Positions 1,191 to 57,135 of a DNA stretch of 64,000 bases are shown in pieces. The notes under the pieces are model-generated. The model did not search any database. It saw only the letters and a program-made list of their open reading frames with translations, and was not told the origin of the DNA. This DNA is from Microcyclospora pomicola (Eukaryota; Ascomycota; Dothideomycetes; Capnodiales): contig NHNY01000034.1 in assembly GCA_002786065.1 (NCBI GenBank), forward strand, positions 216,818 to 280,817, given 5' to 3'. Numbering within the stretch: position 1 is the first letter of the stretch; every line of letters begins with the position of its first letter. Made by a program: the position numbers and the translations under genes.

Positions 1191-1441
1191 GACGGAAATG
1201 TGATTACTCAAATCAGAAGTAGATTCCGGTCGAGGTGCGCTACGCTAGTGAATCAAAAAGTTGGGCCAGCATCCAAGTTGTTGAGTGGCAGATGGTGTGT
1301 CCTCTTGATGCTGTTCCAAGGGCAGATAATGAGTGGCAAAGAAGCGAATGACCAGGCTGGAGTCGATGTTGGTTGTAGTTCAATAATCGATGCAAGTACG
1401 GTAGTGAGCTGGCGGAAGTGTCTCGGCAAAGACCGCTGCGG

Positions 1442-1513
1442 TACGGTGGGTCATAACGGATTTTGGGCCACATCGCTTTTAGGTTCACTACTTCCTGTTG
1501 GCGTCTCGCTTAC
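1442..1513 (+). repeat. Left terminal inverted repeat
   Basis: It matches the reverse complement of 13899-13970 at 64 of 72 positions, with the outer 33 bp perfect. CTGCGG directly precedes it. The end is abrupt: just outside lies ordinary promoter-like sequence of the left-hand gene. Confidence 0.9.
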
Positions 1514-2054
1514 CATATTCCACCTACCCCCTCGGTGCTACGTAAGCATCTGTACAAAACACCGCTATCATTCTGCCACACGTGACGTGTTCCCAGTGTA
1601 TACCCTCTACATATAGACAGTAGATTTGCGCTATAGAGCTAAAGCCAACATTGATCCATTGAAATCATCGGCGACTCTTTTTACTATGTGTACAACTAGC
1701 AGGTGTAAGGTAAGCGTCTATATCAAAGCTAAAAGTATCCTCTTCGCGCGCTAGTAAGATAGTTAGTTCCGACATAGAGCGTTTATGTAATTTATAAGGC
1801 GGAGTATTCTAGATGTAGGTCAGTATATTAAACAACAGTCAAAAAGTTGTACAGCTCGAATACCTGTTTAACAAATAAATCAACAGCTGGAAAATCGGCT
1901 AAAGGGCTCTTATTTAAACTAAATATAAACTCTTGACTTAGTTCAGCTTTGACGACGGCGTTCTACAGTAAATGCATTAGTAACAAACGCAAACACTCGA
2001 TTGCAAATTGTACGCATACATTACTTTCTTATTTAACTAGTCGGCTAGATGCGG

Positions 2055-2580
2055 ACTTCTTTTTAGGCTTTGCCTTTAACTTTAAATTCTAGTCCTTTTT
2101 CGAAGCTTTTACAGTTACTAGCTTTTGTTTCTTATTAGGCTCAACTTCTGCCTTATTATACAGTGCGTTTCTAGGCTCTAGTCGCTCGCAAAAGATCTAG
2201 ATGTTGTGGTTCTTCTTTCTGTTAGTCTTGAAGTCGTGCTACAAAAGCTCTAAGAGGGTAGTATCCCTAAACGCTCTCTCTTAGACTCTAATCGGTTCTA
2301 GTTGCCTCCCCCCTAGATTATACGTAAGGCTTGCGAAGATTCGACTATTGTCTTTGTAGTGTATAAAGGAATAGAGATCGAATTCCTCTGATATCGTGTC
2401 TAAGAAATGTCCCTAGTTATAGGACTTAAAGTCTTTAATGCTGCCTATTTCGGCAGTGTCTAGTATTGTACAGTAGTATTTAGTAATAAGAAATGTCTTA
2501 AACGAAGGCAGAGTTCCGAGCAACCTTACTGTGTCTAAACTAATTATAAGTCCTACAACCGTCAACATCTTCGGAATCTA
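2055..2580 (-). pseudogene. Relic reading frame inside the TIR element
   Basis: Read on the minus strand from 2580 down, one frame gives about 175 codons of protein-like sequence (for example LGTLPSFKTFLITKYY, ISEEFDLYSFIHYKDN and a lysine-rich tail). It is interrupted by only about six stops, all TAG. The other frames I checked carry more stops, including TAA. TAG-only interruption is what RIP makes from CAG (Gln) or TGG (Trp). Above 2580 the frame is lost, probably by an indel or intron. I do not recognise the protein; as the only long relic in the left arm it may be part of the transposase gene, but that is a guess. Confidence 0.45.
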
Positions 2581-5499
2581 TATTATAGCGTCTAATAAAG
2601 CAATGTACAGTCAAATTCAGCTTTAACATTGTTGCTAAAGGCTCGAAAGCTAGTCTTTGCGTTTACTAAGACACTAGTATAGCGCCAGCATCTAAAATCG
2701 TCTTTTTAGCGGCATTTGCACGATTGCGATGCGCAATTATATTATAATTAGATTGTACAGCCGATCGGTTTTAAAGCAAACTTGCTAATCCGCCTTAATA
2801 AACTTGCTAGGCTAGTCTAGACTCTAGTATGTCTTCGTTATTGTCTATAAGATTAATCACATCTAAGTGAACAAAAGACACTGTCCCTAGCGTTATATTC
2901 TGCTTTAGTTTTTGTACACGCTTGTTTAGTAGTAGAACCGGATTGCGAAGTCTATAAGCTAGACATTAGTCTATTATAAAGAAATAAGTGCTATAGTTAT
3001 TGATCTTAGGATTTACCTTGCAGGCAATAGTCGGATACTAGAATTTCATAATTGTAGGGCTGTTTTTAATGTGTACAAAGTATTAGAACAGGAAGCCTGT
3101 TTCTTTTACATAAAAAAAAGCTTTTAAAAAGAAGGTGCTGAATTCTAGAGTGCTATATATCTGATCGATCAGGTAGCATCCTAAAGGCTTAAGCGCTATA
3201 CAGGGCTCGTGTGATCTTATTGTACACTGCTATTACAGGCTCGGATACTGTGCCCTATATTAATCCTCTGTATAGAGCTCTAGTCTCTATTAAGGGTGCT
3301 ATTAGATTATACAGCATATAGTCTGTAAGCGCCTCTTAGAGTATACGAAACACATATTTGTGTTTGCGCATCGATACCGACTATATAAAAGTCATTGCAT
3401 TAGATAGCTAATACAAAATACCCTTTTGCTATAGCAGATTCTTACAAAAGCTTATAGTTGTGTCTAGAAGAAACTCGTTAATATCTAAGATCATCCTACT
3501 ACGTTAGAGCCTCGGCTTATCTATACGCAGTGCTATATGTCTTGTATATACCGAAATCTGCACACGCGTAGCGCAAATCGCTTACTAGAGCTGTATTAAC
3601 TAGACACCCGTAATCTACAATAGTAGTATCGGTATATAGTGTTTCTAGCTTCCTAGCCTTGACCTAGGGCCGGTTGCTTTACTTCCGGATTAGATGCACA
3701 TTCTACATTGTTGTGAACCGTTTTACAATACTACGAAGTACTAGCATATAGATATATAGTAGCGTAATACGGTTAGCAGCTAGATTCTTGTTATACAAGC
3801 CGTCTATAGCGTATCTACGGAACAGTATCTAAGAATATTGATTGTACATATTAGATTATGCTGATACTGTAGCTCAAATCAAACTTTACTTACATGCTAG
3901 GCCTATAGCGATCTTCCGCTTAACTGATTCTACTACGATTCAACTCGCTGATTAGACGTGCTAGTGCTAAAGACGTAGCAATCGCGAAACGCTATGTTGT
4001 TTGTACGCATAGATTTAGCGTTTATAAACTAAGCATCTGCTATTAGTAGTACCTCCTTTCCCTTATCTGATCGTATAACCTTTAGTGCTACCCGAAGGGT
4101 TTTAAGCATATTAACAAATTGTGTAAGTACAGATACTAATATACGGCTCGAAATACCGTAATATGTCTATATTACCTTTCTTAAGTAGGCATCGATTGTA
4201 GCATAGATCTAGATGCCGAATTCTTTAAGCTTGCAATGCGCATCGATAGACTATACAGCGTTTAGACTAGACATTATATATCTACCTCGACAGTAGTCTA
4301 CAACGTTACGTCTGTTGTACACGCCGTTTAGGTCAAGATCGCGTAAAAGGCGGTCTAATGTATGCCTAATCAAGATTATTAGTATGTGTAGATTTTGACT
4401 TTGTGACTAAACTATGCCTTAAGATGTGTAGGCTAGCATAGCGCTTTAAATACGCAAGCATAAATGTACGGCTATAAAGTGTGACCTCTCCTTTATTAAG
4501 CTCTTTGCGGATAATGTCCTTTATTATATCTGATCTTTCTGCTGTTTAGTCTGCTTATAGTCTTCTTTTTAGGCCTATAGCCCTTCTAATCTGTACAATT
4601 CTCTACGGTTTGATAACAACATTAGCCTAGGATTAAAGGCTCTCTACGATTTCATTGTCTAATTAGTTGTCTATATAGAACAAGGTACTAATAAGTACTC
4701 GGAGGAAGGGCGTGTCTAGATTCGATTTGTTCTTCTGCGCTCTAAGGTTTCTAATGGTGCGTTTGATTGTACGCGTCGAAACTACGACGTTGCAATAAGA
4801 AAGCTAGGTTTGAAGTGCTTTATATGTAGCGCCTTGATTCTAGTACCGGTCGCAAAGCTCCGGATAGAGCGACAGATCGATCAGCGTATTTGGAGCTATG
4901 TTGACCTATTTTCGAGCTGTACAATATATCCAGAATAACAGGATAGAGTAAGACGACGGGTTGTCTAGCGAGGCAGGCGGTATTAAAAGGTGTTTCTCTG
5001 TCTTATCATCTAAGTTAAAGATAGATTGTAGCAGTTTAGTCTTTGTTTTAAGGCTGAAACTCTATTGTACAGCTACAGTCTCGATAGGAATAGTTCAAAC
5101 TACATTAATGAAACACTCGTACTTTTCTTCTACACTCTCTTACTATATCACCCTATAATGTATAGTTCACAACTTAGGTCTTATTAGCACACGTTGTCTC
5201 TTTAGAAAGGGTTATCTCGGCCGTTATTTGAGATGTCGTTAATCTCCTTTGTAGCCTCTCTTGCACTTCTACCGCGCTAAAGACTCTGTATCTCCTTCGC
5301 TCCTAGATCCCGAACAACTCTATCCGCAAGCTAGCGAGGCTTAACAGTTCGTCCGGAACGAGTTATATAGCTGCTTTGTTCTGCTAAAGAGTCGCTATTG
5401 TCTAGAGAGGCGTAATTTAGGAAAGCATATAGCGAGGCTTAGTTATTAAAGACACAGTTTCTATAAGCTGTATTTGTCTTCCCTGCTATAGTAGCGCAT

Positions 5500-5705
5500 T
5501 GCTAACTAGCAGTTAGAATCTATTATACAGTTTGAAAAGATTGATTCACGAACCTTGAAGTGTCCCTTTCCCTCGTCACATCTTAAGCACTCTACCGCTA
5601 CTTTGTTATGCTTCGCGATTTTCCCGCTAGAGTTCTGAGTCAACCTCTGCCCTATTTGCCTGTCGAGATCTTTGTACATACTAACTCTAAACAATCAATG
5701 CGTCG
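5500..5705 (-). pseudogene. Relic of repeated cysteine-rich gene, copy A1
   Basis: Minus-strand translation starts with ALIVWSWYVQ (a TAG read as Trp) at 5704-5672. After a frame change it continues to VECLRCDEGKGHFKVRE and SNCIIDSNC. The same ALIVWS-like start recurs in copies B1, A2 and B2. The Cys-x2-Cys spacing suggests a small zinc-binding protein, but no known family is recognised. The open part (5506-5694) is short and probably not a functional gene. Confidence 0.4.
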
Positions 5706-6984
5706 ATATAACTCGCTCGGTTGCGGATAGTGTCTAGTTCAAAATCTTCTAGGTAGCGAAGAAAGACAAAGTAGTCTAGGCCTTTGAACATCTCTTCCTA
5801 GCGGCTGTTTATGTTGAATCCCGCATCTTCTAGCTGTACAATATGTCAGTCTTAAAGGATGCTTTAGTAAGACTCCTAGGTCTGACTTACTCTTTGTTTG
5901 GTTATAGTAAGAACAAGCTTATCTTCTCTAGATTGTTCTAGCAGATTAAGAAGTGATTAAGGTACAAACAGCATCGTGGCTTACGTGTTGTTTGTACTAG
6001 TAGAAATGTGATTTTGTTAATAGTTAAAGGAAGGAAGTGATGTAGAGATCTAATAGTAAAAGCTTTAGTATAGCAAGTAAAAGCTACTAGTTGTTAAAGA
6101 GAATTAGAAAGTAGTTTGTCTCGCTAGTAGTAAACAAGTCTTTGTGCATATACAAACTAATAGTAGTAGCTAGTAATAGAATGTTGTTTATCTAATATAT
6201 GCTAGTAAGTTAGAACAGGGGAAGTAAAGCTATAAAGTAAAATAAGAAGGTTGCAAATTAGCAAAGCCTAGTTATATACGTAATAGAGCTGAGTCGCGCT
6301 AGTTTGTACATACTATAATTTTCGAAGGTGTAATAGCTTAATATGCTTATATATTCTATGTGTGACTTTAGAGAATAGTCTAGGTAAGACAGCAACTCTA
6401 TCTGCTATCGATAGGTCTTAGAAGCCTTTGCTAACAAATGCTTTGTTTATAGCTATTTTAGCACTGCACAAATTTGATTTCCTTTAAAACATGCTTGTCT
6501 CTAGTGCTATAGTGGCTGCAAAGCTCTTAACGATACTATGTATGTCTTCTAAAGAGTATCTATTATTCTTCGAATTACATCCTTGTTTTAGACGATATTA
6601 CCTACAATGCATCTTATATAGCTAGAAAGATAAGTTAGAATACTCTCTAAATCTATATAGGCCTTTTAATAATACTACTAGAAGCATAAAGCCTAAGCAA
6701 AAAGTCTTATTCCTAGATGTGCCTAGTTTGAAACAATCGGGACTACATGTTTGCAAATTAGCTATATACAATATGTCCTCGCTGCTGTCGGCAGCTTTTA
6801 AAACCTAAATCAGACTCTAAACTCCCTACTCTAAACTTTTAAGAGGTCCTAGCAGCCTCTATCTCCTACTCTATTGTTCTCTATCTTAACTATATTTGTC
6901 CTATGTTCCTTCTTAGCCGCGTATTAAAACCGCTTTGTACTGCTACTTCTTCATCCTTTTTAAGGCTGTTAATAGGCAGATCGG

Positions 6985-7285
6985 CTACACATAATCCTAT
7001 TATCAATCTAGAGACAATTTCTACAGGCACTGTCTACGAAGCCCTCGATAGTATAGCATTCCTTTTGTTATATTAGCAATAGTTGTATAGTTAGAATAAG
7101 TGATCTTACATCGAAGGGGCTATAAGTATATTACTCCTCCTTCATCTACTAGGTAAAAGTCCTTTTCTTCTCCTCGCAATAGTCGCAGGGCTCTCCTATA
7201 GGTTTATCGCTACTAAAGCCAGTTAGTCCTACGCATTGCTAGAAGCACAAATTGTACATACTAAGACTAGGCGATCAATAAGTTG
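6985..7285 (-). pseudogene. Relic of repeated cysteine-rich gene, copy B1
   Basis: Minus-strand sense: a start resembling LLIAWSWYVQ at 7284-7252. Then, after a frame change, GEPCDYCEEKKRTF near 7,190 and DSACRNCL near 7,020. It aligns with copy B2 at the same landmarks (PCDYCE against FCHCCE, DSACRNC against DNAYRNC). In-frame stops are of TAG type. Function unknown. Confidence 0.4.
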
Positions 7286-8039
7286 ACAAAGTTCTTAAAG
7301 CCAGGCATTATAGTTAGGCTATTAGTTAAAGTGCAGCGGACGAATCTCCCTTTGTTCCTAAACAACGCTTCTTTCTAGGTATTGTCGAGGCAGACTCTAA
7401 GATCTTCGATCTGTATAATGTTAGCCGTGTCTAGTAAGCTGTAATAAAGAACTTACCTTATCCTTTCTTAGATCTAATACAGCTATACTATAATTGTCCT
7501 TAGGCCTTTTAAATAGATAGTGTAAGCTATACTTAGAGTAATTGTCTTCTGTAGCAGTAGGGGCTATCTTTTGTACATATAGATTCTTTAAAAGTTAAGT
7601 AGCTATTATAATATAGGAAGATCGAAGAAGGTTAGAGATAATTGTTGTTAGAAGGTAGAGAAGAGGTTAGGGAAGAGGTATTAATGTAATAGAGGATAAG
7701 GAAACAGATTAAATTACCGTGATTACTGCCTAAACAACGTGTTCTTTGTTATGTGTATACTGTAGCTAACGAGTATGTGTTACAAACTATGTAAATAGTC
7801 CGACTAAAGGCTAGAAGTAAATAAGGAAGGTAGTAGATGAACCGCTAAGGTAGAAGCTATATCGACTGATAATAGCAGGGGGCAATAGCTAGAGCACACA
7901 TTGTATACACAGAGAGGCTTTTAAACTTAAAGATGCTGTAGAGGAAAGCAGCGTTAAAAGACTTAGTTATATTAAGGAATCTTGCTAGGCAGTATACTTA
8001 TATAATGTAAAGGCTAGATACTCGAGCACGCTCTTCTAG

Positions 8040-8990
8040 TTCTAAGGTTAACGATTGTACATGTCGTATATTCTGTCGTCCTTCCATTTGATTGCGTATA
8101 AAGCTTGTTAAGAAAAATGCTAAAATGCAGTTAGATTAGTAAGTATGTTAGGCTAGTGATTTTAGATCAAGATGTTTTAGACATGCTTGCTACTAGACTA
8201 CCGATAATGTATATAGTATAATTGCTAGCCCCTAGCTTAGATCTAGCAAGATGCGAGCTAGGAAGAATACTAAATTGCCCCTAAGCTGCCGACTGCTCGA
8301 ACCTACAAATCTTTGTTTAGGGAATCTTAGCATAGCTAGAGCGAAAACGCCAGATTGTGCAGGCCGTATATTTGCTAGTTCTACAATTTGCTCCGAGAAC
8401 TAGAAACTCGGGAATGCTACCGAATCTCGACTAGGCTAGTAACTGTATCGACCTACGAATCCTTCTTTAGAGAGCCTTTGTGCAGCCACGTCTAGACGGC
8501 CGGATTGTATAGACCGTATATAAGCTAGCCCTGCATCTATCTTTCGAAACTGGAAAATTAGGGGCGCTGCCGAATCTTGGCTAGGCTAGCGACTGCATCG
8601 ACCTGTAGATTGTTCTTTAGAGAGCTTCTATACAGCTATAGCTAGACAGCTAGACTGTGCAGACCGTATATAACCTAGCCCTGTAACTATCTTTCGAAAC
8701 TAGAAAATTAGGGGCGCTACCGAATCTCGGCTAGGCTAGCAGCTGCATCGATCTCTACGCTCTTCTTTAGAGAGTCTTATTGTAGCTATAGCTAGAGCGG
8801 ATCATTGTACAGACCGTATATTTGTTAGATCTACGCTAATAACTAGAAAATTAAGTCTTAGAAGACAGCTGAATCTCGACTAGGCTAAAAACTACATCGA
8901 CTCTCTAGCTCCTTTACTAGGGAATACATTGCTTACACAATATAGATCCGTAATTGTACCTACGCTATGCCCGCTCTTCTGTTACTCAAC
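8040..8990. repeat. Array of ~150-bp tandem repeats with TGTACA cores, array 1
   Basis: About five diverged units of about 150 bp. Each carries a core like ATTGTACAGACCGTATAT (near 8,353, 8,503, 8,656 and 8,806) followed by a second conserved part near CGAATCTCGGCTAGGCTAG. The palindrome TGTACA is often changed to TGTGCA or TGTATA. Related cores also occur singly elsewhere in the element (for example 1,845, 2,752, 9,332, 12,470). Confidence 0.65.
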
Positions 8991-9112
8991 ATAAAGACGA
9001 TATTAATTGTAAGGCATACTAGATTCTTCGATCTTGCCCCTTTTTATACTAGGCTCTATATATATGTGTCGAAAACTATTGTTATTAAAAGTAGCCCTAT
9101 AGTCTAGTAGTC

Positions 9113-9289
9113 TGCTACTTAGGATCTCTCTAATCGAGCAGGCTTTATGCCTGTTCTAAGCGCTTTTCCGCAGTTAGGAAGAATTCTAGTCTACTTATTA
9201 TTAAGTAAGTAGACTCGACTCTTCCTAATTGCAGAAAAGCGCTTAGAACAGGCTTAAAGCCTGCTTAATTAGAGAGATCCTAAGTAGCA
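9113..9289. repeat. 177-bp near-perfect inverted repeat (hairpin)
   Basis: Two arms of about 88 bp face each other with almost no spacer, centred near 9,201. The outer end reads TGCTACTTAGGATCTCTCTA on the left and its exact complement on the right. The few differences cluster at four sites, some of them C/T changes. It lies between the two 4.42-kb copies. It could be a foldback element, a small MITE-like insertion or a structure belonging to the element; no clear flanking duplication was found. Confidence 0.8.
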
Positions 9290-9929
9290 CATTTTTATTC
9301 TTTATATTACAATAAGACCGAGACTAGATTGTACAGCTCGTATATAGATTCAAATTCGTTTTTAACTAAATTTAATAGTATATAGGTCGGTCTGTAGACT
9401 ATATAGATGTATACATATGTTTAAGACTGTAATGTACTAAACAACATTGCGTAACACTTAAAGACTTATTCAAACATTGTACATATCGAAACTTGTTCTA
9501 GAATTGGTTTGAATATTTTATTAACTTAGTAACTCTAAAAGCCAAATCCCCTAAGTAAATCAACCCCTTTAGTTAGAACTATACCTTAGAGCTGTATGTT
9601 TATTGTTAAAGCTAGCTCTGCATCTGTAGCAATTCCTCTTGTTCTCTTAAATACTATAGCTCTATCTTAGACAGACCTCTGTTATCCTTACCTTTTCGAA
9701 TTGCTTAGATCTCCTTTGCTCTAGGATCCCGAACAACACCCTTAGCTAGCTTTATAGGCTTCGATTCGCGACTAGACCTAGTTGTACAGAGATAACCTCT
9801 AGTAACAGGGTCACTTTAATCGATAAGGCGGCTGTTAGGAAACTCGTATTGTAAGGCTTAATTGTTAAAGGTGCAGTTTCTATAGGCAGATTTTAAGCTC
9901 CTATCCCTTGTCTTATAGTCCTTTTTAAA

Positions 9930-10122
9930 GTTTAGCATTTGTTATACAGTTAGAAAGTAAAGACTACCTACCTTAAAAAGTCCTTTTCCTTCTCTATATC
10001 TCTTATAATTAATCTGCTATCCTCCTAACTTTATAGTTTTGCTACTGTTTCTATTAGCTTTGTTCTCTAGACTTAGCAGCTATAGACAGTTGTATATACC
10101 GACTCTAGATAAGCAATGCGTT
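9930..10122 (-). pseudogene. Relic of repeated cysteine-rich gene, copy A2
   Basis: It shares the 33-bp block at 10090-10122 (minus-strand reading ALLIWSRYIQ) with the other three copies. At DNA level it lines up with A1 through the following ~100 bp, but the cysteine codons are largely lost and stops are frequent. This is the most decayed of the four copies. Confidence 0.35.
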
Positions 10123-11404
10123 AACATGACTTGGTCGGTTCTGTACTATGTCCTTACAGAAGTTCCCTAGGTCACGAAGAACAACAGGCTAAGATCGCTT
10201 TTTTAGAATTTCTTCCTAGCTACGGCTACGATTGAATCCTGCAGCTTTTAGCTATACAATGTTAGTGTTCTGTTATGTAGGTATAGGAAGACCTAGCCTT
10301 AAACACATATACGATTTATCCACAATAAGTACATGCTCCTCCTTACTATACTGATTTTGAGTTGCGACAAGGAGTTTAGAAGCGTCTATAGGTATAGCGC
10401 TTTATAGCAGAGTTATACTAGTAGAAATCTAGGGTTTAAAGCTGTTAAAAGGTATAAGGTGTAAAGAGGAGGTAGATTCAAAGTTGTTGTATGCAAGGTT
10501 TAAGTAGATTGAAAGGAAAAGGATTGTGTGATGTTATAGTTTATTAGCGACTGAACAAGAGATTATGCACATACAAACTGTTGCCTGCTAAAGACAATAG
10601 TCTGCGCTAAACTCGTGCAAGTAAAGTGCATGTGATGCTAATTCTAAATTGAAACCGATCTCGTCGAGTAAGTAGTAACAACCCTAAAAGGACCTAAATA
10701 CATTGCTAGGGCTGCTGCTAAGCGTAGTTGTATTGTACAGAGCGATTTAGCAGAGTTTCGGAGGGTTATAGATATCGTTAGATTCCAACATTGAAGGCTA
10801 GATATGATCTAGGTATATTAAGCACTCTAACAAACGTGCTAATAGATTGCGCTATAGCAACCTTTCGTAGATTGCCTAGCGTTGTGCAGCTCGTAATTCC
10901 GGTCGAGCATTCTACAAGCTAGGGTCGAGGCTCTAAGGATGCTAGACAATATACCCCTAACCTCGATTGTAGAGCATTAAGACATTAATACATACGCTTT
11001 TTAGCTTATAGCCCTAGTTATTAAGTGCTATAATGCCGTCTGTACATTTTGAAAAGCATAGCAAAATGTGAGTAAGACTAACAAAATCACATTATATTAC
11101 TTTTTAGACTCTAAGGGCTAGCAGAAAAGACAACTCCCTAATCGCACCTGCTCGTCAAGGTTATCCGCTGCTATTAATCTAGAATGTAAATGCACAAACC
11201 GTTTGCAAAGCCTATATCCCTCTCTAAGCTCCTAAGACCTTCCTCTAGTTTCCCTACGCTTGCTACTAGAGTTAGACAAACCCTCCTCTACGTTTCCTTT
11301 CCTAGCTATATACCGCGCCGCTCTGTCCCTCGCTACCCTATCGAGCTTCTCTTGTTCACGCCTTTTCTCCTTCTCTATAGCCTTGTAAGTATTAGAATGC
11401 TCGT

Positions 11405-11712
11405 ATATTAGCTTATTACTAACCTAGACGCAATTTCTATAGGCATTGTCGAGATTGCCCTCGAAGACCTTACAAGTCTACAGACTGTTAGCGCGCTGTT
11501 ATATATATAGAATAGTTGAACTTACTCTGAATAGGCCTTGTCGTTTACGCTATACTACCTTGTTATCTACCTAGCCTTTAAACAATAGTTCACAGCAATG
11601 ACAGAAATCCCCCTGCTAGGTTCCACTACAATAACAAAGGTTAGCTCTATCTACATCGTTACGAGGGGATTGTACATACCGACTCTAGACGATCAATGCA
11701 TCTTAGTAGTTT
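11405..11712 (-). pseudogene. Relic of repeated cysteine-rich gene, copy B2
   Basis: Best-preserved copy. In a single minus-strand frame it reads ALIVWSRYVQ, then LCYCSG, GDFCHCCE and DNAYRNCV, with TAG and TAA interruptions (Gln or Trp in the ancestor). The Tyr in DNAYRNC matches Cys in copy B1, a TGY-to-TAY change expected of RIP. Function unknown; possibly cargo or an accessory gene of the TIR element. Confidence 0.4.
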
Positions 11713-12599
11713 AAACGGCTATAGTCGAGGCTCTTAAAGGTATCCTAACAATCCTTACGAATCTTAAATGCTGTTCCCTCGTTCTGCTCTAATAGCTAGA
11801 TCTGATCTTCGTTTAGCGTAACTCTAAGTTCTTGTAGCTATACAATGTTAGCTTGGATTTATTAGCGAAAGTAAATAAAGGAATACCCTGTTTCTATTAA
11901 TATGCAGATATAGTCGGTTCTAATTTCTAACCTTCTTCTTTTTAATTAGCGCCTTAAGATCAAGTACTGCTATACTAAGTGCTTTATAGTAGTGCGTTAT
12001 ATAAGTGGTTTCGTTAAGAGGATTAGGGCTAAATAGCAGTAGGAGGGCAGAGGAAAGTTAGAGCAGATAGTGTTTGTAAGGTAGAGAGAAGGTTAAGAAG
12101 AAGATGTTGTTAAAAGGAATGTCGAGGAAACAGGAAGAAACGTGGTTTTCAGATATAAACAGTCACCGCTGTTTTATGTGCAGAACGTAGCTGATTATAT
12201 TAGCTAACACTATTAACTAAAGATAGCTATAGTAAAGAATAATTAGCAAGTAAACTGAACTGAACTAACATATAAAGGGTAATTGCTTACTAGTCTAAGG
12301 CTGTTAATAAGTAAGGAATGTATATACCGAAAGTATAGCGAACAGAGTTCTACTATAAAGGAAATTAATGTTAGATAGATAAGCAAATAAGATGCAAAAT
12401 CTAAGTCTACAAAGTAAACTTAGATTCGTGAAATGCCTATAGTATTAATTTAGAGCACTGCGCAAGGATTGTACAGACAGTATATTTACATACCTTTTAA
12501 TTAATGCGAGCGAGAAGTTCCTTAGGAGACATACTAAATCGCTATAAGGTTAGTAGCTTAATAGCTGTAGCAAGGTTTGATCCCTGCATGCTTACGTAG

Positions 12600-13560
12600 C
12601 CCTCTTGTATACCGATAATTGTGTATGCAGTATATTTCGTGGTCCTTTAGTTTGGACATTAAACAAGCAATCTAGGAGAAGTGCTAAATTGCAGCTAGGT
12701 TAGTAAGCGACACAGCCTAATGTCTTTAGGTTAAGGAGCCTTATAGCTACTAAGCCTTGTAAGGTGGACGATGTACGCTGTATAATTGCTAGCCTTATAA
12801 CTAGACTAAGCTAACAGCAGCTTAGGGGCACTGCCGAATTACTTCTAGGCTGCTAACTGTATCGACTAGTAGAATTATGTTTGCCGAGCTTTCCTAACGC
12901 TAGAGCTTAAACGCAAGATTGTGCACACCGTATAATCGCTAGCCCTTAGCTTAGACCTAGCAAAGCATTACTAGGGAAGAGTGCTGAATCTCGCCTAGGC
13001 TGCCGACTCTATTGACCTAGCGATACTTCCTTTAGGAGCTTTTCTATAACTAGAGCTTGAAAGTAGGATTGTGCACGCCGTATATCCGCTAGTCTACTGC
13101 TACGCTAAGCAAGCTAGGATTTAGGAGAGAGGCTGAATCTTAGCCGGGCTGCTAACTGCATCGACCTATAGACTCTTACTCTAGGGTCTTTTAACTAGCT
13201 ATAGCTAGAGAGCACGATTGTACACGCCGTATATTTGTAAGATGTCCACGCAAACCCCGAAGATTAATATCTAGGAGAAGTGCTGAATCTTAGCTGAGCC
13301 GCTAACTGTAGCGGTTTCGGAGTTTTTCTTTTAGAAGCTGTCCTAAGGCCTAAGCTATAGTGCGCGATTGTACAGACCGTATAGCTCCTTGTTCTTAGCC
13401 TTCCCTACGCCTAATATAATTTGTGTCCTTCCCGAAGCTATTGCCGAATTGCTGCCTAGATATAGATCAGATAGATCTACATTATCTAAATCTCGCGAAT
13501 GTATAGCTTCTCTTCTTCTAGGCCATTGTACATGTCGTATCTCGTGCGACCTGTCAATTA
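12600..13560. repeat. Array of ~150-bp tandem repeats with TGTACA cores, array 2
   Basis: Counterpart of array 1 in the second 4.42-kb copy, with cores near 12,767, 12,920, 13,065, 13,216, 13,365 and 13,523 (spacing about 150 bp). Each unit again contains the GCTGAATCTTAGC-like and ATCGACCTA-like blocks. No gene is seen in the array. Confidence 0.65.
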
Positions 13561-13898
13561 GTGCATTGTAGACTCCCTAGAGACTATAGACAGTATAACT
13601 GTGATTTGAAAGCTTAACGTAGGCTTTAAGTTAGTAGAGGGCAATGCTTTTTCTAGACGGAATTTAGTAACTAACTGTACATACTGTGTTCTTAATTCTG
13701 GCGCTGTCTAAGATAGCAATGTTTTGATGGTTTGGGGATGGTTATAGCGAGGCTTTAATAGGTTAGGTATAGCAATATCATAACGCAAGACAAGTATAGA
13801 TAAATGGGAGTCCTACTAATGGACTATTTTGGACCTTCACTGCCTTCAGTGACTAATGTACATTTGGTTTATTATTACAGAGTTTTAAAATGATTATT

Positions 13899-13970
13899 GT
13901 AAGCAAGGCGCGAGCAGGAAGTAGCGAACCCAAAACTGATGTGGCCCAAAATCCGTTATGACCCACCGTA
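13899..13970 (-). repeat. Right terminal inverted repeat
   Basis: Inverted partner of the left terminal repeat, ending CCCACCGTA and followed by the second CTGCGG. It lies 94 bp upstream of the REX1 start codon, so the element was inserted in or next to the REX1 promoter. Confidence 0.9.
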
Positions 13971-14064
13971 CTGCGGACTGACCTCCGTGCAGTTGCTGCA
14001 AAAGAAAGTCATCGCTTCGACGTCTGTCCAACATAGAAACTTATAACAAGCGCGCGACTCACAA

Positions 14065-16197
14065 ATGACGAAACGGAAGAGAGCGCACCATGATCATGGG
14101 CGCGACTCACAGGTTGGAGTTGGAGCCACTTTGGCAGCACTGAAAGCCGTCGAAAATCACAGCGCCGCCGAAAATGTCACAGAAGGCAGTGAATGGGAGA
14201 CGGTCAAGAAACGCAAGAAGCATCCCAAAGGCGGCAATTATCCATCCATCGCACACTCCTCGCACGCCCGCCTGCAGAGCTGTGTCAAGCTTAGCGACCT
14301 GCAGAACTTGGTCCTGTACCTGCTCGCTGATGGCAATGCGCCACAATGGTGCGCGGTCAGACATCACAGCAATGTGCGGAAAGTGGTAGTGCTCATGGTT
14401 CCAGGCCTGGAGCCTGGCATGTTCGATGGAACCATCTTACCGCTGCCATCCAGTGGAGAGGTTGCACAAAAGGAGTCTTCATCAGCAGATAGCACAGAGC
14501 TAGCTTCCAACCAAGACAACAACGATTCCCAGCATGTGCAGCAGAGTTCGACGTCCAAACCTTACAAGTCCCCCGATGATTACTACCCTACCAAACTCTC
14601 TCCATCCGGTCTGCCTGATTCACTCAAACCTCTGGCTGGCATATTCGAGCATATTTGGCCTGTCAAAACACCTGGAGAAGACCGGTACTCCAAGATGCAT
14701 TCTCCGCTGGCGGCTCTACTCACTGCTCCGATTGTGAAGACCAAGGAAGACAAGAAGGCGAAAGGACCTCAATTTCCACTAGAAGGGCGAAACTGGCAAA
14801 ATAAACGTACTCCCGTCACCGAGCTTGTTGCCACGACTGACGAGCTCGCTGAGGAAGGCTATGTTCTGCACCCTGCGCACTACCGAAATACCCCTACCGC
14901 CAAGTTGTCCGCGGAGCGTCGTGTCGAAAACAAGACTAGCACACTCGATGGCTGGGTCGACGTCGTTGATGTGCACGACTTAAGTGCTGGCAATGCCCCG
15001 GACAGGGACATCGAAAGTGGTGCTGTCACTGCTGGACGTAAAGTGTTCGCCATGGACTGCGAGATGTGTATCACTTCTCCGAGAGGGGTGTCGCCGCAGA
15101 TTTTCAGTTTGACGCGCATATCAATCCTGGACTGGGACGGAGAAGTGGTGCTTGATGAGCTCGTGAAGCCTGCAAGCCCTATCACAGACTACCTCACACC
15201 ATACTCTGGGATCACAGCAGAACTTCTCGAAGGCGTCAAAACCACTTTACCGGACATACAAGAGAAGCTGCGCGGCATTCTCACGCCACAAACAGTTCTT
15301 GTAGGCCACTCATTGGTCAGCGACCTGAATGCCCTTATGATTACGCATCCATTCGTCATTGATACCGCACTCCTCTACCCACACCCTCGTGGGCCGCCGC
15401 TGAAATCATCCCTCAAATGGCTATCTCAGAAGTATCTAGGCCGTGAGATTCAAAAGGGTCATGGTTCTACTGGGCACAACAGCAGCGAGGATGCACGGGC
15501 TTGTCTCGATCTTGTCAAGCAGAAATGCGAAAAGGGCAAATCATGGGGCACACCAGAAGCCAACGGCGAGAGCATATTCAAACGTCTTGATCGAAGCCAT
15601 CGTGCTAAGCGTGACAAGGTCAACCCTGCTGGAGATGACGAGCATAGAATCGGCGCAGTCATCGATTGGGGCGATCCAAGTCGCGGCTACGGTAGCTCAG
15701 CAAAGGTTGTGATTGGATGTGAAAGCGATGTTGAGGTCGTTGCTGCGGTCAAGCGAGCCGTCCTTGGCGAAGCAGAGGAAAGCTTGACCACCGTCCCACG
15801 AGGCGGATGTGACTTCACCTGGGCGCGATTCCGAGAGCTTGAAGCCTATCGTGGATTCTGGTCTCGATCCAAGACGGCCGACAATGCGGCGATTCGATCC
15901 ACCTCGCTGACATCGACCTCGGAAGCCACACTGGCCACTGTGGTCGGAGAGACGGTGCAGCACATTCAGGAAATATGGGACGCGCTGCCTTTGTGTACTG
16001 CCATGATCGTGTATTCAGGGTCCGGCGATCCTAGAGAGTTGTCCAAGATGCAGGACATGCAGCGCCAGTACAAGGAGGAGTTCAAGGTGAAGAAGTGGGA
16101 CGAACTCAGCGTGAAGTGGACGGACACGGAGGAGCAGCAGCTACGCAAGGCTTGTGAGACAGCCAGGATGGGCTGTGGGTTCATCGCCGTCAAGTAA
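14065..16197 (+). CDS. REX1: RNA exonuclease REX1/Rnh70-type (DEDDh)
   Basis: 710-aa single-exon protein. The DEDDh 3'-5' exonuclease domain lies at about residues 325-485: Exo I MDCEMC (D331, E333), Exo II HSLVSDLNAL (D420), Exo III H471-x4-D476 in HNSSEDARACLDL. All catalytic residues are present. The order DELVKP...DYLTPYSGIT...VIDTALLYPHPRGPPLKSSLKWL is typical of the Rex1/Rnh70 group, which trims 3' ends of 5S rRNA, 5.8S rRNA and tRNA precursors in the nucleus. The N-terminus is basic and low in complexity (KKRKKHPKGG), fitting nuclear or nucleolar location. The start is the first ATG; the transposon end lies only 94 bp upstream, so its promoter must be very short or was altered by the insertion. 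Assignment to REX1 rather than REX3 or REX4 rests on length and motif context. Confidence 0.9.
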   Translation: MTKRKRAHHDHGRDSQVGVGATLAALKAVENHSAAENVTEGSEWETVKKRKKHPKGGNYPSIAHSSHARLQSCVKLSDLQNLVLYLLADGNAPQWCAVRHHSNVRKVVVLMVPGLEPGMFDGTILPLPSSGEVAQKESSSADSTELASNQDNNDSQHVQQSSTSKPYKSPDDYYPTKLSPSGLPDSLKPLAGIFEHIWPVKTPGEDRYSKMHSPLAALLTAPIVKTKEDKKAKGPQFPLEGRNWQNKRTPVTELVATTDELAEEGYVLHPAHYRNTPTAKLSAERRVENKTSTLDGWVDVVDVHDLSAGNAPDRDIESGAVTAGRKVFAMDCEMCITSPRGVSPQIFSLTRISILDWDGEVVLDELVKPASPITDYLTPYSGITAELLEGVKTTLPDIQEKLRGILTPQTVLVGHSLVSDLNALMITHPFVIDTALLYPHPRGPPLKSSLKWLSQKYLGREIQKGHGSTGHNSSEDARACLDLVKQKCEKGKSWGTPEANGESIFKRLDRSHRAKRDKVNPAGDDEHRIGAVIDWGDPSRGYGSSAKVVIGCESDVEVVAAVKRAVLGEAEESLTTVPRGGCDFTWARFRELEAYRGFWSRSKTADNAAIRSTSLTSTSEATLATVVGETVQHIQEIWDALPLCTAMIVYSGSGDPRELSKMQDMQRQYKEEFKVKKWDELSVKWTDTEEQQLRKACETARMGCGFIAVK

Positions 16198-52416: not shown

Positions 52417-53737
52417 CTGTAGGTGCAACGAAGTTTGTAGTCTGTGCGTTTTAAGGATTTAACATAGATTAGGGATGTTAGCATAACTCAATCAAATAGC
52501 AATGTAGAAGGTTGATTTATAGTTCATTTAAAAGGTGTGATATATAGCTACAAAATTGCCTACTTAGTATTTAGTTTGCTAGCTATTTACATCAATAATA
52601 GCCTAAAGTCTGTTAGGTATTAAATCTATTACACTTTTAATCTATTCTAGTTTTAGTTGCTCCTATACCTTTAGTAAGTGTTATATAAGTACTTAAAGTT
52701 ATAATGCCTTGCTTATAATATAATTTAACTTAGAGTATAGTTTATATAATAACTCTTTAAGTCTTACTTATAGGTGCTTAATTAGATTAAGATTAGGGGA
52801 ATATAGTAGCTAGCTAATAAACAAATAAATACTAATATCCCCTAACTACTAGACCGTTAATAACGAGGTATAGACTAGAGCGTTGTTATATATATAGGTC
52901 TTACCTCTATATACTAGTATAAGGCCTACCTTAACTACTATCTAATATAAGACACTTAAATAGCTACTCCTTAGTAACGACTTATTACGCTCTATAATAA
53001 TTAATTCTATAGCTCTAAAGGGACTAATTATAGCGTAGACTATTAGTAAGGCTTATTTACCCTTTAAATATTCTATAATCTTATTATAGTTCTACTTTTC
53101 TAAGAGATAACTAAAGAACTATACCCTTTTTTTACTAGTACTAAACTCTATAGAGCACTTATTATAAAAGGCCTAGTTTTAATACTACTATAAGAGCGTA
53201 AGATACTAGTATTAACGTACAAATTGCAGCTACTCTTAGGTATAGATTAGCAGTAGTTTAAGGCGCTTTTTAGCTATCTAGTACTTAATATAGTATTCTT
53301 TTAGAGTATAGGAAAGCTATTACCTTAAAAATTTAAGGCTAGTATTAGATTTAATAGTTAACTATATATTTTAAGAATTAGTATAGATATAATATAATAG
53401 ATACCTTTAGTTACGCTCTAAGAGCGTTTTAGAGCGCTCTTTTTGTAGTATAGTAGTTATAGATTACCTTTTTCTAACCTTTATAATAGTAGACTTAATA
53501 GTAGAGAGAGGGAGATTTTCTTTAAGAGTAATAGTAATATCCTTAGTACCTACTATAGCCTATCTATAAATCTACGTACGCTATACCTCTAATAACTAGC
53601 CTCCTCTCTATCGATTAGTACTAATTAGTACTAATAGCTTATATTATAGTATTAGTAATATAGTGTTTAAAACAATAGCTTAGAACGCGTTATTTTAATC
53701 TTTTAAGTATAGACTATAAACTTACTTACTAGTATAG
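52417..53737 (-). mobile_element. RIP-decayed Tc1/mariner transposon
   Basis: A 1,321-bp element flanked by TA on both sides (52415-52416, 53738-53739). The first ~43 bp (CTGTAGGTGCAACGAAG...) match the reverse complement of the right end, with differences mainly of the C-to-T or G-to-A kind. Minus-strand translation through TAG/TAA stops shows a Tc1/mariner DDE transposase: YNNALVYTS (ancestral DNAPVHTS), then LLYSPNLNLIKHL (ancestral PYSPDLNLIEHLW). Heavily mutated, so inactive. Length, TA target and motifs agree. Confidence 0.85.
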
Positions 53738-53739
53738 TA

Positions 53740-54589
53740 GGTAAGGTACGATGCTTAATGTAGTTAGTAGTATACTAGGAACTGCTTTTATATATAAGGC
53801 TCGATACCTCCTTCTACTCTATACTTAGCGATATATTCTATACCGAGTATATAAGTATATTAACATCTATTAATATTAGCTATATCTCTCTTATCTATTA
53901 GTAACTAGTAAGTACCGATCTTAACACTACTATTCTATTTTAACTATAATCTAATATAAGTCGCTATAGCTCTAGTAGTAATATTAATTTAATAAGTATA
54001 CCTATATATACCTTAAACATCTTATCTACCTTAACCTTCTATCCGAGCTACTTTAATATATACCTAGACTATAATAGTAGTATAGGTAATTACTTCTACT
54101 ACCTTATTAGTAACTATAGGCTTAATACTATAGCTAACTAGGTTAACTACCTATTATATAGCTAACCCTAGGAAGCTAGGGTAATATAGTACGTATAGTA
54201 AAGGCACGTACTTAAGCTAATTAGTATAGCCTAACCTATAATTAGTCTAATCGAGTATAAGAATCGGTCTAATCTATAACCTAATTAGACTAACTTACGT
54301 GTTAGCGTTAACTAATTATATAAATCTCCTTTATATATAACGAATAATCTTTTATAGGTAGTTAGAAGTTTGTACTTAATTTATGTTATAATCTTTACCC
54401 TAGGTTACTAATCGCCTTAACTATTATAAATCCCTTCTCTTAACTTATCTTATATAAAACTCCTATATACTAAATCTCGGCTTTACTAACCTACCTTTAT
54501 AATACTTTAAGTACTGCTTTATATAGACTTATAAGACAGGGCTAGTCTATAACTAGTACCCCTCTATTTAAAACTATATCTATCTATTA
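53740..54589. other. Strongly AT-rich decayed DNA
   Basis: Between the mariner and gag relics. No coding relic could be read; it may hold the LTR and leader of the gypsy element, but repeat boundaries are not visible by eye. Confidence 0.4.
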
Positions 54590-55650
54590 CGCTAGATTAG
54601 AAGATAACTCTTTAAACGCTTCTTATAATAGTATAGACTTTAAGTCTCTTAACCTTAAGGAGATTACTCGACCTATAGTTAATAACTAAGCTATAACTAC
54701 TTAGATTAATAACATTAAGATATCTATCTATATATAGTCTACTATTAGGGTACTAACTAATAGAACCTCTACTTAGATTACTAAAGTTAATACTCTAGAT
54801 TAGTTTAAAAGTAATAAGTTATAGCTAAAAGTCTTTAAGATCTAGTATAACTTATATATTATAGTAAATATAGAATAGTTCCTAACTAATTATAGTAGGA
54901 TACTATTTATAGTTTCCTACCTTAAAGAAGCTACCTTCGAGTAGATCGAGCCCTACTTAATAGACTTCTTAGACTATAAGAACTTAAGTAATACAAAACT
55001 GTCTACTTAGGCTATATTTACTAGATCTAATTCTCTTTAAACTAGAATATAAGAAGCCTTTAAGAACTCTAATAAGAAATAAGAGGCTAAATAAGACTTA
55101 CACCTCCTTATCTAGACTACTTTAGTTATAAAGTACTTAACCGACTTCTAAACCTTAGTTACTAAGCTCGACTATATACTAGAGCTTATTAAGGATTAAT
55201 TCTATATTAGGCTTAAGGATATCGTAAAGGATAAACTTATTAAGGATAATTAGCCTAAAGAACTAGAAGAGTTCTTTTAGAAGGCTATCTATATCGATTA
55301 GTATTAATATAAAAGACGAATAGAGAAGAAGGGTAGATTTATTCTCTAAGCTAATATAAGAGTATAGAAGAAACTATACTTCTTAGAACACTACTAAGGT
55401 TTAGGACCCTAATCTATATATATTAATATAATATAGTAATAGAAGAAGCTATTAAAAGAGTAAAAGGGACTACGAGATAGCTCTAAGAAGGATAAATCTA
55501 AAGTAGAATACTATAATTACTATAAGATAGGCTACTATACTAATAAGTATAAGAGCTTTAAATAGAATAAGGGACGAGTCGCTACTATAGAGACAAAGTA
55601 ACTCGCTATAATCTAATAAGATCGTAAAGACTATTAAGATACCTAAGAAA
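54590..55650 (+). pseudogene. Relic Ty3/gypsy gag
   Basis: Plus-strand frame with many TAG/TAA stops. It reads as a gypsy Gag: TFEQIEPYLIDFLDYKN, IQEAFKNSNKKQEAKQDL, YLTDFQTLVTKLDY and EEFFQKAIYIDQYQYKRR. A zinc knuckle ends it, in which Cys and His have become Tyr: YYNYYKIGYYTNKY has exactly the C-x2-C-x4-H-x4-C spacing. All these changes are G-to-A or C-to-T. Limits are approximate. Confidence 0.8.
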
Positions 55651-56129
55651 ATACATATAATAGCCTCTTCTAGACTATATACTTTAATAATACCTACCTT
55701 ACTTATGTACTAGCTAAGGTAGAAGCTAGTTAGTTCCTATCTAAGCTAGTAATATACTACTTTACTACTACTATATCCTAGGTAATTCTAGATATAGACT
55801 CTAAGATAGTATAGGAATATTGTTATAGCCTTTAACTTAGGATAATAATTAATAATAGGACAATAAGTATATAGATAGAGTATAAGACATACTATAAAGA
55901 GAGAAAGATAAGAATAGTAATATATAGTAGAACTAATATTCTTAAATTTAGTACTAAGAAGGGAAGACCTATTATACTTAAGGTAGCTATAGCTAGCTAT
56001 AAACTACTAAGTCCTACAATAGGTTATACTATAATACTATCCCCTTCTTCTAAAGGCTAAGCTCCTATAAGGCCTAAAGTAAACAAACTATAGTAGGGCT
56101 TCTAAGGGTACTAATAGTAGAACTTGTTA
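55651..56129. other. Decayed DNA between the two gypsy relics
   Basis: A plus-strand frame after gag still looks partly protein-like (for example YKERKIRIVIYSRTNIL and KKGRPIILKVAIASYKLL) and may be the protease region of the same element. The junction with the minus-strand pol relic lies here but cannot be placed exactly. Confidence 0.35.
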
Positions 56130-56770
56130 AAATACTCTACTAGGGTATAGATATAGTCCTAAGGTTCTTAAGTTAACTTATTATAACCCTCCTATTATAC
56201 TTTATAATAGATACTATTAAGGGAATTCTAAGAGTCTATAATAGCCTATACTATGTATTCTACTATATTATCTATATAAGTAAGTAGAGAGGTAGAGAGT
56301 TGTTATCTTAGGTAGAGGTCGTTAGGATAGGGGTGTAGGAAGTTAATATAGAAGACATTATAGATCTTTATACTAGTAGGGAGCTCTAGGCAGTAGGCTT
56401 AAGAGCTAATCTTTATAGTAATAGTATAAGGGCCTACTTACTTTTAGTCTAGCTTCTTACTTAGCTTAAGGGTCTTAAAGTTATAGCTACTAAGGTATAC
56501 CCTATCCTCTACTTAGTAGTTAGGGGCATTCTTCTAGTGTCGATTAGTATACTTTTTGTAAATAGCTTAGGCAAAGTATATCTCTTATACTAGTATTAGT
56601 TCTACTTGCTCTATCTTAGTAGCGAAGTCCTATGCAGCAATTGCTTCCTAGTTAGAGCGAGTAACAGTTAAGGTAACTATGTGTTTAGAGGGCTCTATTC
56701 CAGTTCGAAGGTGTTGTCTATAGTTAGCTAGGAAAGGAGATGCCTTAGTAGTGCTACCTACTATTTAAGA
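56130..56770 (-). pseudogene. Relic Ty3/gypsy pol, integrase C-terminal part
   Basis: Minus-strand translation through TAG/TAA gives FLANYRQHLRTGIEP, then PNYQVEDRVYLSSYNFKTLK, GPYTITIKISS and IKIYNVFYINFLHPYPND. This is the C-terminal end of the polyprotein of fungal gypsy elements of the chromodomain type. It is truncated at about 56,770, where similarity stops. Its orientation is opposite to the gag relic at 54,590, so the two belong to different insertions or to a rearranged one. Confidence 0.8.
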
Positions 56771-57135
56771 CGATAAGATAGTGTCTTGTTGAGATTCTCT
56801 ATACAAATTCTAAAGTGCACAGACATTTTTAGAAGGGACGACCATCTCTTAGTAACTATCAATTGTTTCGATAACGCGCTATCACAGCGCTTCTAAATAG
56901 TTTTAAGAGGCAATTGAAACAATTTAAAGCAAGTTTTGTATACATTTATAGTCGCTATAACGACTTGTCGTTACATAATGTAGTTTCGAAATGTCGCTTT
57001 ATTAGTATTGAAGTTCGTTAAGGTGGTTCGGAGTATATATGTATATCTTAGACTACTCGCGCTACGACACAGTATTCTACATCACATATGCACTTCGAAC
57101 TATTTAATAGGTAAGGTAGTAGGTCTGAATACAAG
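56771..57135. other. Junction between strong and moderate RIP
   Basis: Base composition changes from very AT-rich to moderate. A short inverted repeat, AATTGTTTC/GAAACAATT, with arms about 45 bp apart lies at about 56,868-56,930. No gene is seen. Confidence 0.4.

What the first reader, a model, noticed from the sequence alone, without database searches (positions are those of the whole stretch)
1436..13976. 12.5-kb TIR element with perfect 6-bp target duplication and TAC...GTA ends
Both boundaries are exact: 72-bp inverted ends (33 bp identical) directly flanked by CTGCGG. The size is large for a cut-and-paste element, and the 6-bp duplication rules out mariner, hAT and MULE. From memory, TAY...RTA ends plus 6 bp fit IS3EU, a superfamily little described in fungi. 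A large composite version with duplicated cargo would be new to me.
Basis: partly seen in the sequence, partly recalled or inferred. Interest (0 to 1): 0.75.

Follow-up and report, generated by a model that had tools for sequence, protein, structure and literature searches.

The report
Large cargo-carrying IS3EU transposon in fungus
A 12.5-kb jumping gene with exact ends, probably in a fungus, belongs to the little-known IS3EU group and owes much of its size to a duplicated block of zinc-finger-like genes and repeat arrays; the copy in this window is dead but the genome holds related copies.

Summary
In detail: element 1442-13970 (12,529 bp), 79-bp inverted ends (69 of 79 matching, first 33 identical), CTGCGG duplicated at 1436-1441 and 13971-13976. 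The unnamed 23.4-Mb genome holds five copies: three uninterrupted, each with its own 6-bp duplication (3 of 3), and two apparently split over contig pairs whose outer flanks also match over 6 bp (2 of 2). The least mutated copy encodes a DDE integrase-type transposase (Pfam rva_4). IS3EU is already described in fungi (Styx, rusts, Colletotrichum). Unusual is the interior: an old direct duplication (window 5290-8876 and 9709-13383), each half with two DUF3716-like Cys-rich ORFs and a 150-bp tandem array, present in two subfamilies about 73% identical. The DUF3716 matches lie just under Pfam's cut-off. The window copy carries many stops; copies differ by CpA-directed mutation typical of RIP. A gypsy-type element of the same genome carries an intact DUF3716 gene, hinting at an accessory shared between transposon classes. 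New variant of a known kind.

The parts
1436..1441 (.). left 6-bp target site duplication CTGCGG
   Evidence: read directly
13971..13976 (.). right 6-bp target site duplication CTGCGG
   Evidence: read directly
1442..13970 (.). whole element, 12,529 bp, subfamily A
   Evidence: five copies in the genome
1442..1520 (+). left terminal inverted repeat with TACGG end; 69 of 79 bases pair with the right end
13892..13970 (-). right terminal inverted repeat with CCGTA end
3156..4911 (-). degenerate transposase gene (bounds carried over from frames of the C57 copy, which change frame several times: introns or damage); catalytic core 3882-4403 with the rva_4 match and 8 TAG stops
1996..2986 (-). second gene of unknown family, downstream of the transposase; its C-terminal part is found in 5 of 5 copies
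   Evidence: no convincing Pfam family
5290..8876 (.). unit 1 of the internal direct duplication (homology in two blocks, with a gap between them)
9709..13383 (.). unit 2 of the internal direct duplication
5205..5519 (-). DUF3716-like ORF a (degenerate here; extends slightly beyond unit 1)
6972..7040 (-). DUF3716-like ORF d (short match, 23 residues)
9609..9972 (-). DUF3716-like ORF b
11235..11477 (-). DUF3716-like ORF c
8258..8899 (.). tandem array 1, 150-bp unit
12822..13383 (.). tandem array 2, 150-bp unit related to array 1
9098..9304 (.). hairpin (85-nt arms, 86% complementary); also in the C17 part of the other subfamily A copy, not listed in the self-comparison of the C57 copy

Best explanation
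A large cut-and-paste DNA transposon of the IS3EU superfamily, dead in this window. Its integrase-type DDE transposase bound the TACGG/CCGTA inverted ends, excised the 12.5-kb unit and joined it to a 6-bp staggered cut, giving the CTGCGG duplication (the duplications and the transposase domain are shown; binding and chemistry are inferred from the superfamily). The element also carries a second gene and four DUF3716-like Cys-rich ORFs. These arose by an internal direct duplication of a block with two ORFs and a 150-bp array, before subfamilies A and B split (shown). The transposase, the second gene and probably ORF a were under selection while the subfamilies diverged (suggested by transversions); they may act as zinc-dependent DNA-binding helpers of transposition or against silencing (inferred). 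Later, copies were damaged by repeat-induced point mutation.
For: Exact ends and 6-bp duplications in 3 of 3 uninterrupted and 2 of 2 split copies. rva_4 in the element; transposase core found in 5 of 5 copies; triad D-x58-D-x41-E. Published fungal IS3EU: 6-bp duplications, inverted ends over 30 bp, TAYGG..CCRTA; TA..TA ends, usually 6 bp. Transversions between the window copy and C57 fall on third codon positions in 7 of 8 in the core, 17 of 24 in the gene 2 C part, 9 of 14 in ORF a (ten segments counted, all listed in the full report). The duplication is in both subfamilies. From C57 to C17, C>T at 517 of 1848 CpA sites (28%) against 4.8-10.8% in other contexts.
Against: No empty site and no tree with reference IS3EU proteins could be tested. 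DUF3716 matches of ORFs a, b, c are under the curated cut-off (20.5, 20.7, 17.8 against 22 bits), and ORF a of the window copy gives no match. The transversion test is negative for ORF b (10 of 30), ORF c (3 of 6) and one more ORF (7 of 24), and in a frame-blind sliding scan only 2 of 53 overlapping windows stand out. A related rva_4 family in the same genome makes 5-bp duplications with GACGG..CCGTC ends, so rva_4 alone does not imply the 6-bp type.
Confidence: 0.92

Rival explanations
1. A Polinton/Maverick or another virus-like element with an integrase (also 6-bp duplications, recalled).
For: 6-bp duplication, integrase-type enzyme, more than 10 kb.
Against: Six-frame Pfam scans over the whole C57 copy at E 0.1 find only rva_4 and rve, no DNA polymerase B, packaging ATPase, protease or capsid. 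The window copy itself was not scanned in six frames.
Confidence: 0.02
2. A passenger: IS3EU ends carrying unrelated host DNA, the internal block being captured host genes.
For: A related family of the same genome is only about 4.6 kb; other DUF3716 loci exist in the genome.
Against: The transposase lies inside the element in 5 of 5 copies; the block is shared by both subfamilies; at E 0.01, 9 of 9 genome matches of ORF a lie in copies of the element.
Confidence: 0.05
3. A neighbouring DDE superfamily (Ginger1/2, Dada, IS481EU) that happens to make 6-bp duplications.
For: IS3EU, GingerRoot and IS481EU transposases are close to one another (PMC10045372, passages); no reference proteins were at hand for a tree.
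Against: TA..TA ends and 6 bp fit IS3EU/GingerRoot as described; IS481EU makes about 4, 15 or 25 bp. Ends and lengths of Ginger1/2 and Dada are recalled, not tested.
Confidence: 0.05

Closest known systems
Fungal IS3EU elements with TET/JBP cargo (rusts; IS3EU-1_TuIn of Tuber indicum), PMC12730594
   Same: 6-bp duplications, inverted ends over 30 bp, TAYGG..CCRTA ends, transposase plus accessory genes (passages)
   Different: No TET/JBP or alpha-kinase domain found by Pfam at E 0.1 in the C57 copy; instead a second gene and four DUF3716-like ORFs with 150-bp arrays. Sequences not compared
Styx of Zymoseptoria, PMC10853768
   Same: Transposase that points to IS3EU, 36-bp inverted ends, 6-bp duplications, extra ORFs including putative DNA-binding ones with GATA and CCHC domains (passages)
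   Different: 7,927 bp; four ORFs, one with DUF3577; no duplicated block in the passages read. Sequences not compared
C11-type rva_4 family of the same genome (L036, L039, L040, L045)
   Same: Transposase core about 45% identical for L036, inverted ends, a Cys-rich ORF near the other end
   Different: About 4.6 kb, GACGG..CCGTC ends, 5-bp duplications in 4 of 4 copies examined

Membership tests
IS3EU superfamily | 6-bp target site duplications | tested here: met
   3 of 3 uninterrupted copies and 2 of 2 copies read as split
IS3EU superfamily | TA..TA termini (TAYGG..CCRTA in the fungal members) and inverted ends over 30 bp | tested here: met
   TACGG at 10 of 10 ends; 79-bp ends in the window copy; description from PMC12730594 and PMC10045372
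IS3EU superfamily | integrase-type DDE transposase | tested here: met
   rva_4 E 2.9e-16 in the C57 copy and 2.5e-10 in the window copy; D-x58-D-x41-E. That rva_4 is the IS3EU domain is recalled, from no call
IS3EU superfamily | no HHCC zinc domain upstream of the core | tested here: inconclusive
   none seen by eye in the N-terminal frame of the C57 copy; no Pfam zinc domain there; no dedicated motif search was run
IS3EU superfamily | transposase groups with reference IS3EU/GingerRoot in a tree | not testable with these tools
Polinton/Maverick | DNA polymerase B and capsid genes (recalled definition) | tested here: not met
   six-frame Pfam scans of the C57 copy give only rva_4 and rve
DUF3716 (PF12511) for the accessory ORFs | score over the curated cut-off of 22 bits | tested here: not met
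   20.5, 20.7, 17.8 bits for a, b, c of the C57 copy; 19.0-21.3 bits for four places in that copy in the genome search; hence 'DUF3716-like'

The most novel reading that the evidence does not exclude
DUF3716-type Cys-rich proteins are a recurrent transposon accessory shared across transposon classes, as TET/JBP is among DNA transposons. In this genome the 12.5-kb IS3EU family carries four such ORFs, and a gypsy-type retroelement carries an intact antisense DUF3716 gene of 357 codons just beyond its RT-RNase H-integrase frame. They may bind repeat arrays or ends and counter silencing or aid transposition; the 150-bp arrays beside each two-ORF block would be their targets.
Probability: 0.25. Interest if true: 0.65.

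Novelty: new variant of a known kind. Interest (0 to 1): 0.42.

Why it matters
It adds a large, exactly bounded IS3EU family and shows that such an element could still insert at about 12.5 kb after duplicating its accessory block. It points to a domain (DUF3716), named by no paper of the held library, as a likely transposon accessory, which can be tested. The sister family with 5-bp duplications suggests that duplication length is not fixed among rva_4 transposases.

Tried and rejected
Structure prediction of the window's transposase core (174 aa, TAG read as W, no alignment) gave mean pLDDT 37, so no fold search was run. A PDB sequence search of the core gave 0 matches at E 0.1. Pfam on ORF a of the window copy gave nothing, and the host ORF at 14047-16197 gave only one match far under its cut-off. 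The lone end-like site at C3:351343 has one match, itself, in the genome and an unrelated interior over the 1,221 bp fetched. The host species was not pursued; 'fungus' rests on the RIP-like pattern and on gene content, not on a taxonomic test.

I considered the contig pairs C40/C17 and C7/C56 as four truncated copies; the matching 6-bp outer flanks made one interrupted copy each the better reading. The C40/C17 copy is broken at element position 3680-3685 by an LTR-like insertion (starts TGTTACG, CTTTT on both sides). In the C7/C56 copy the parts held lack C57-copy positions 5874-9913 and have instead a 2,763-bp stretch, inverted at the two contig ends, which could be partly an assembly effect; what lies between the contig ends is unknown.

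Full report
Observation. The two CTGCGG copies lie at window 1436-1441 and 13971-13976 and the element is 1442-13970, 12,529 bp. Its ends pair over 79 bp with 69 matches, the first 33 without a break. GC is 38% inside the element and 50-61% in the kilobases from 14001 to 52000.

Copies. The window is C28:216818-280817 of an unnamed 23.37-Mb genome in 58 contigs. The two 79-bp ends find 10 places. A 20-base end pattern with up to 3 mismatches finds the same 10 and one more at C3:351343 with 1 mismatch; the pattern read backwards, the tool's control, gave 4 matches. I read the 10 as five copies. Uninterrupted: C28 (window), C57:260940-273212 and C17:41007-53418, with CTGCGG, CTGTCT and CGTGTA on both sides. 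Split: C40:62083-65767 with C17:16018-24867 (outer flanks GCGAGA on both), and C7:1-8631 with C56:645035-650154 (outer flanks ACGGAC on both). That is 3 of 3 and 2 of 2; that each split pair is one copy is inferred from the flanks. Aligned end to end, the window copy is 72.6% identical to C57 and 74.1% to C17:41007-53418, and those two are 89.2% identical to each other. The window copy and the C40/C17 copy (subfamily A) are about 93% identical.

Transposase. Six-frame Pfam scans over the whole C57 copy (L018 and L017, stops as X) give rva_4, integrase core, E 2.9e-16 in one frame and its continuation in another, plus a weaker rve match, and no other family at E 0.1. The window's core with TAG as W matches rva_4 at E 2.5e-10; the window copy was not scanned in six frames. 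In C57 the triad is D-x58-D-x41-E. The core is found in 5 of 5 copies, with in-frame TAG stops in 4 of 5 and 8 of them in the window copy; 10 more distant matches (26-48% identical) lie elsewhere in the genome. The gene runs on the minus strand, window about 3156-4911; in C57 it is spread over several frames, which may be introns or damage.

Interior. A second gene follows the transposase (window 1996-2986); its C-terminal part has 5 matches in the genome at E 0.01, one in each copy, and no convincing Pfam family. Beyond the transposase lies a direct duplication: 3849-7435 and 8268-11942 of the window element, 3845-7441 and 7752-11510 of the C57 copy, with homology in two blocks, 59-62% and 60-69% identical for the main pieces. 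Each half has two short Cys-rich ORFs and a 150-bp tandem array. Four ORFs a, d, b, c are found by tblastn in the window copy, in C57 and in C17:41007-53418; C7 (left half) has a and d; the C17 part of the split A copy has a, b and c, with d not reported at E 0.01. Three match DUF3716 at 20.5, 20.7 and 17.8 bits, under the cut-off of 22; a genome search with the family gives four places in the C57 copy at 19.0-21.3 bits. A 35-base motif at window 5672, 7252, 10090 and 11670 (steps 1580, 2838, 1580) fits the two-by-two layout. As both subfamilies have it, the duplication predates their split, and the element has inserted at five different sites.

Selection and decay. Transversions, which RIP does not make (established knowledge), were counted between the window copy and C57 in ten ORF segments whose bounds I chose from the C57 frames. 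Third-position shares: transposase N part 11 of 19, core 7 of 8, C parts 4 of 7 and 7 of 14, gene 2 11 of 21 and 17 of 24, ORF a 9 of 14, ORF b 10 of 30, ORF c 3 of 6, another ORF 7 of 24. Rates per site are 1.7-4.7% in the transposase, gene 2 and ORFs a and c, against 8.1% over all aligned sites and 8.4-8.5% in ORF b and the other ORF. A frame-blind scan of 53 overlapping 450-bp windows flags 2, both inside gene 2 or the transposase core. So transposase and gene 2, and probably ORF a, were under selection; ORF b shows none. Decay: from C57 to C17, C>T at 517 of 1848 CpA sites (28%), against 52 of 1077, 108 of 1000 and 84 of 1766 at CpC, CpG and CpT; the reverse direction is flat, 4.0-5.6%. 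This is the mark of repeat-induced point mutation known from ascomycetes.

What it is. Published fungal IS3EU have 6-bp duplications, inverted ends over 30 bp and TAYGG..CCRTA ends (PMC12730594, passages); IS3EU in general has TA..TA ends, usually 6 bp, and no HHCC domain (PMC10045372, passages). The features of ends, duplication and integrase-type transposase are met; the HHCC test is by eye only and the tree could not be made. IS3EU is known in fungi: the most abundant DNA transposon of Colletotrichum lupini (PMC11645255, passages), TET/JBP-bearing IS3EU in rusts and in Tuber indicum, and Styx, mostly 7,927 bp with four ORFs, whose transposase points to IS3EU (PMC10853768, passages). New Styx insertions with 6-bp duplications were seen in a pedigree, the best published model I found for how this element moved. 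In the passages read, no IS3EU of 12.5 kb or with this accessory set is described; supplementary tables with element lengths were not open to me.

Accessory genes. The related 4.6-kb family of this genome also has a Cys-rich ORF near its far end (L052:774-1508), which matches no Pfam family. In the genome-wide DUF3716 search 11 places were listed at E 1, 6 of them over the cut-off; four of those six (C30, C36, C38, C50) have the same score and a 357-codon open frame. The two that I fetched are identical over 2,328 bp. In C50 the gene lies antisense about 200 bp beyond a 925-codon frame that matches reverse transcriptase, RNase H, H2C2 and integrase domains in gypsy order. So DUF3716-type proteins ride on at least two classes of mobile element here, if the sub-threshold matches in the IS3EU family are true. 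No paper of the held library holds the word DUF3716. I think they are zinc-dependent DNA-binding helpers, with the 150-bp arrays as possible targets; that is inference.

Verdict. Observation confirmed; IS3EU reading supported; ordinary in superfamily and mechanism, unusual in size and in its duplicated accessory block.

Noticed in passing
L036, L039, L040, L045 (C11, C56, C3, C1): A related rva_4 family of about 4.6 kb with GACGG..CCGTC ends makes 5-bp, not 6-bp, duplications (ATGAT, GTGAG, GTTCC, ATAAC: 4 of 4 copies examined; of 14 ends found, 8 could be paired).
   Followed up: partly
L053:962-2032 and L054 (C50, C38; same score at C30 and C36): Intact 357-codon DUF3716 ORF antisense to, and just beyond, an RT-RNase H-integrase frame of a gypsy-type element.
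   Followed up: partly
C56:647387-650154 and C7:1-2766 (L027, L028, L025): A 2,763-bp stretch, 100% identical and inverted at two contig ends, sits where one copy of the element lacks its middle; it holds a histone-like ORF (Pfam Histone E 5.2e-26).
   Followed up: partly
C3:351343 (L051:64-84): A lone end-like sequence, 20 of 21 bases as in the B-type end, with an unrelated single-copy interior; perhaps a solo end.
   Followed up: partly
L015:3769, L038:2972: The same LTR-like start (TGTTACGACTCGCG..) has inserted in a copy of the window family and in a C1-type relative.
   Followed up: no
window 53001-57000: A second AT-rich stretch (GC 27-34%) in the window, outside this element.
   Followed up: no
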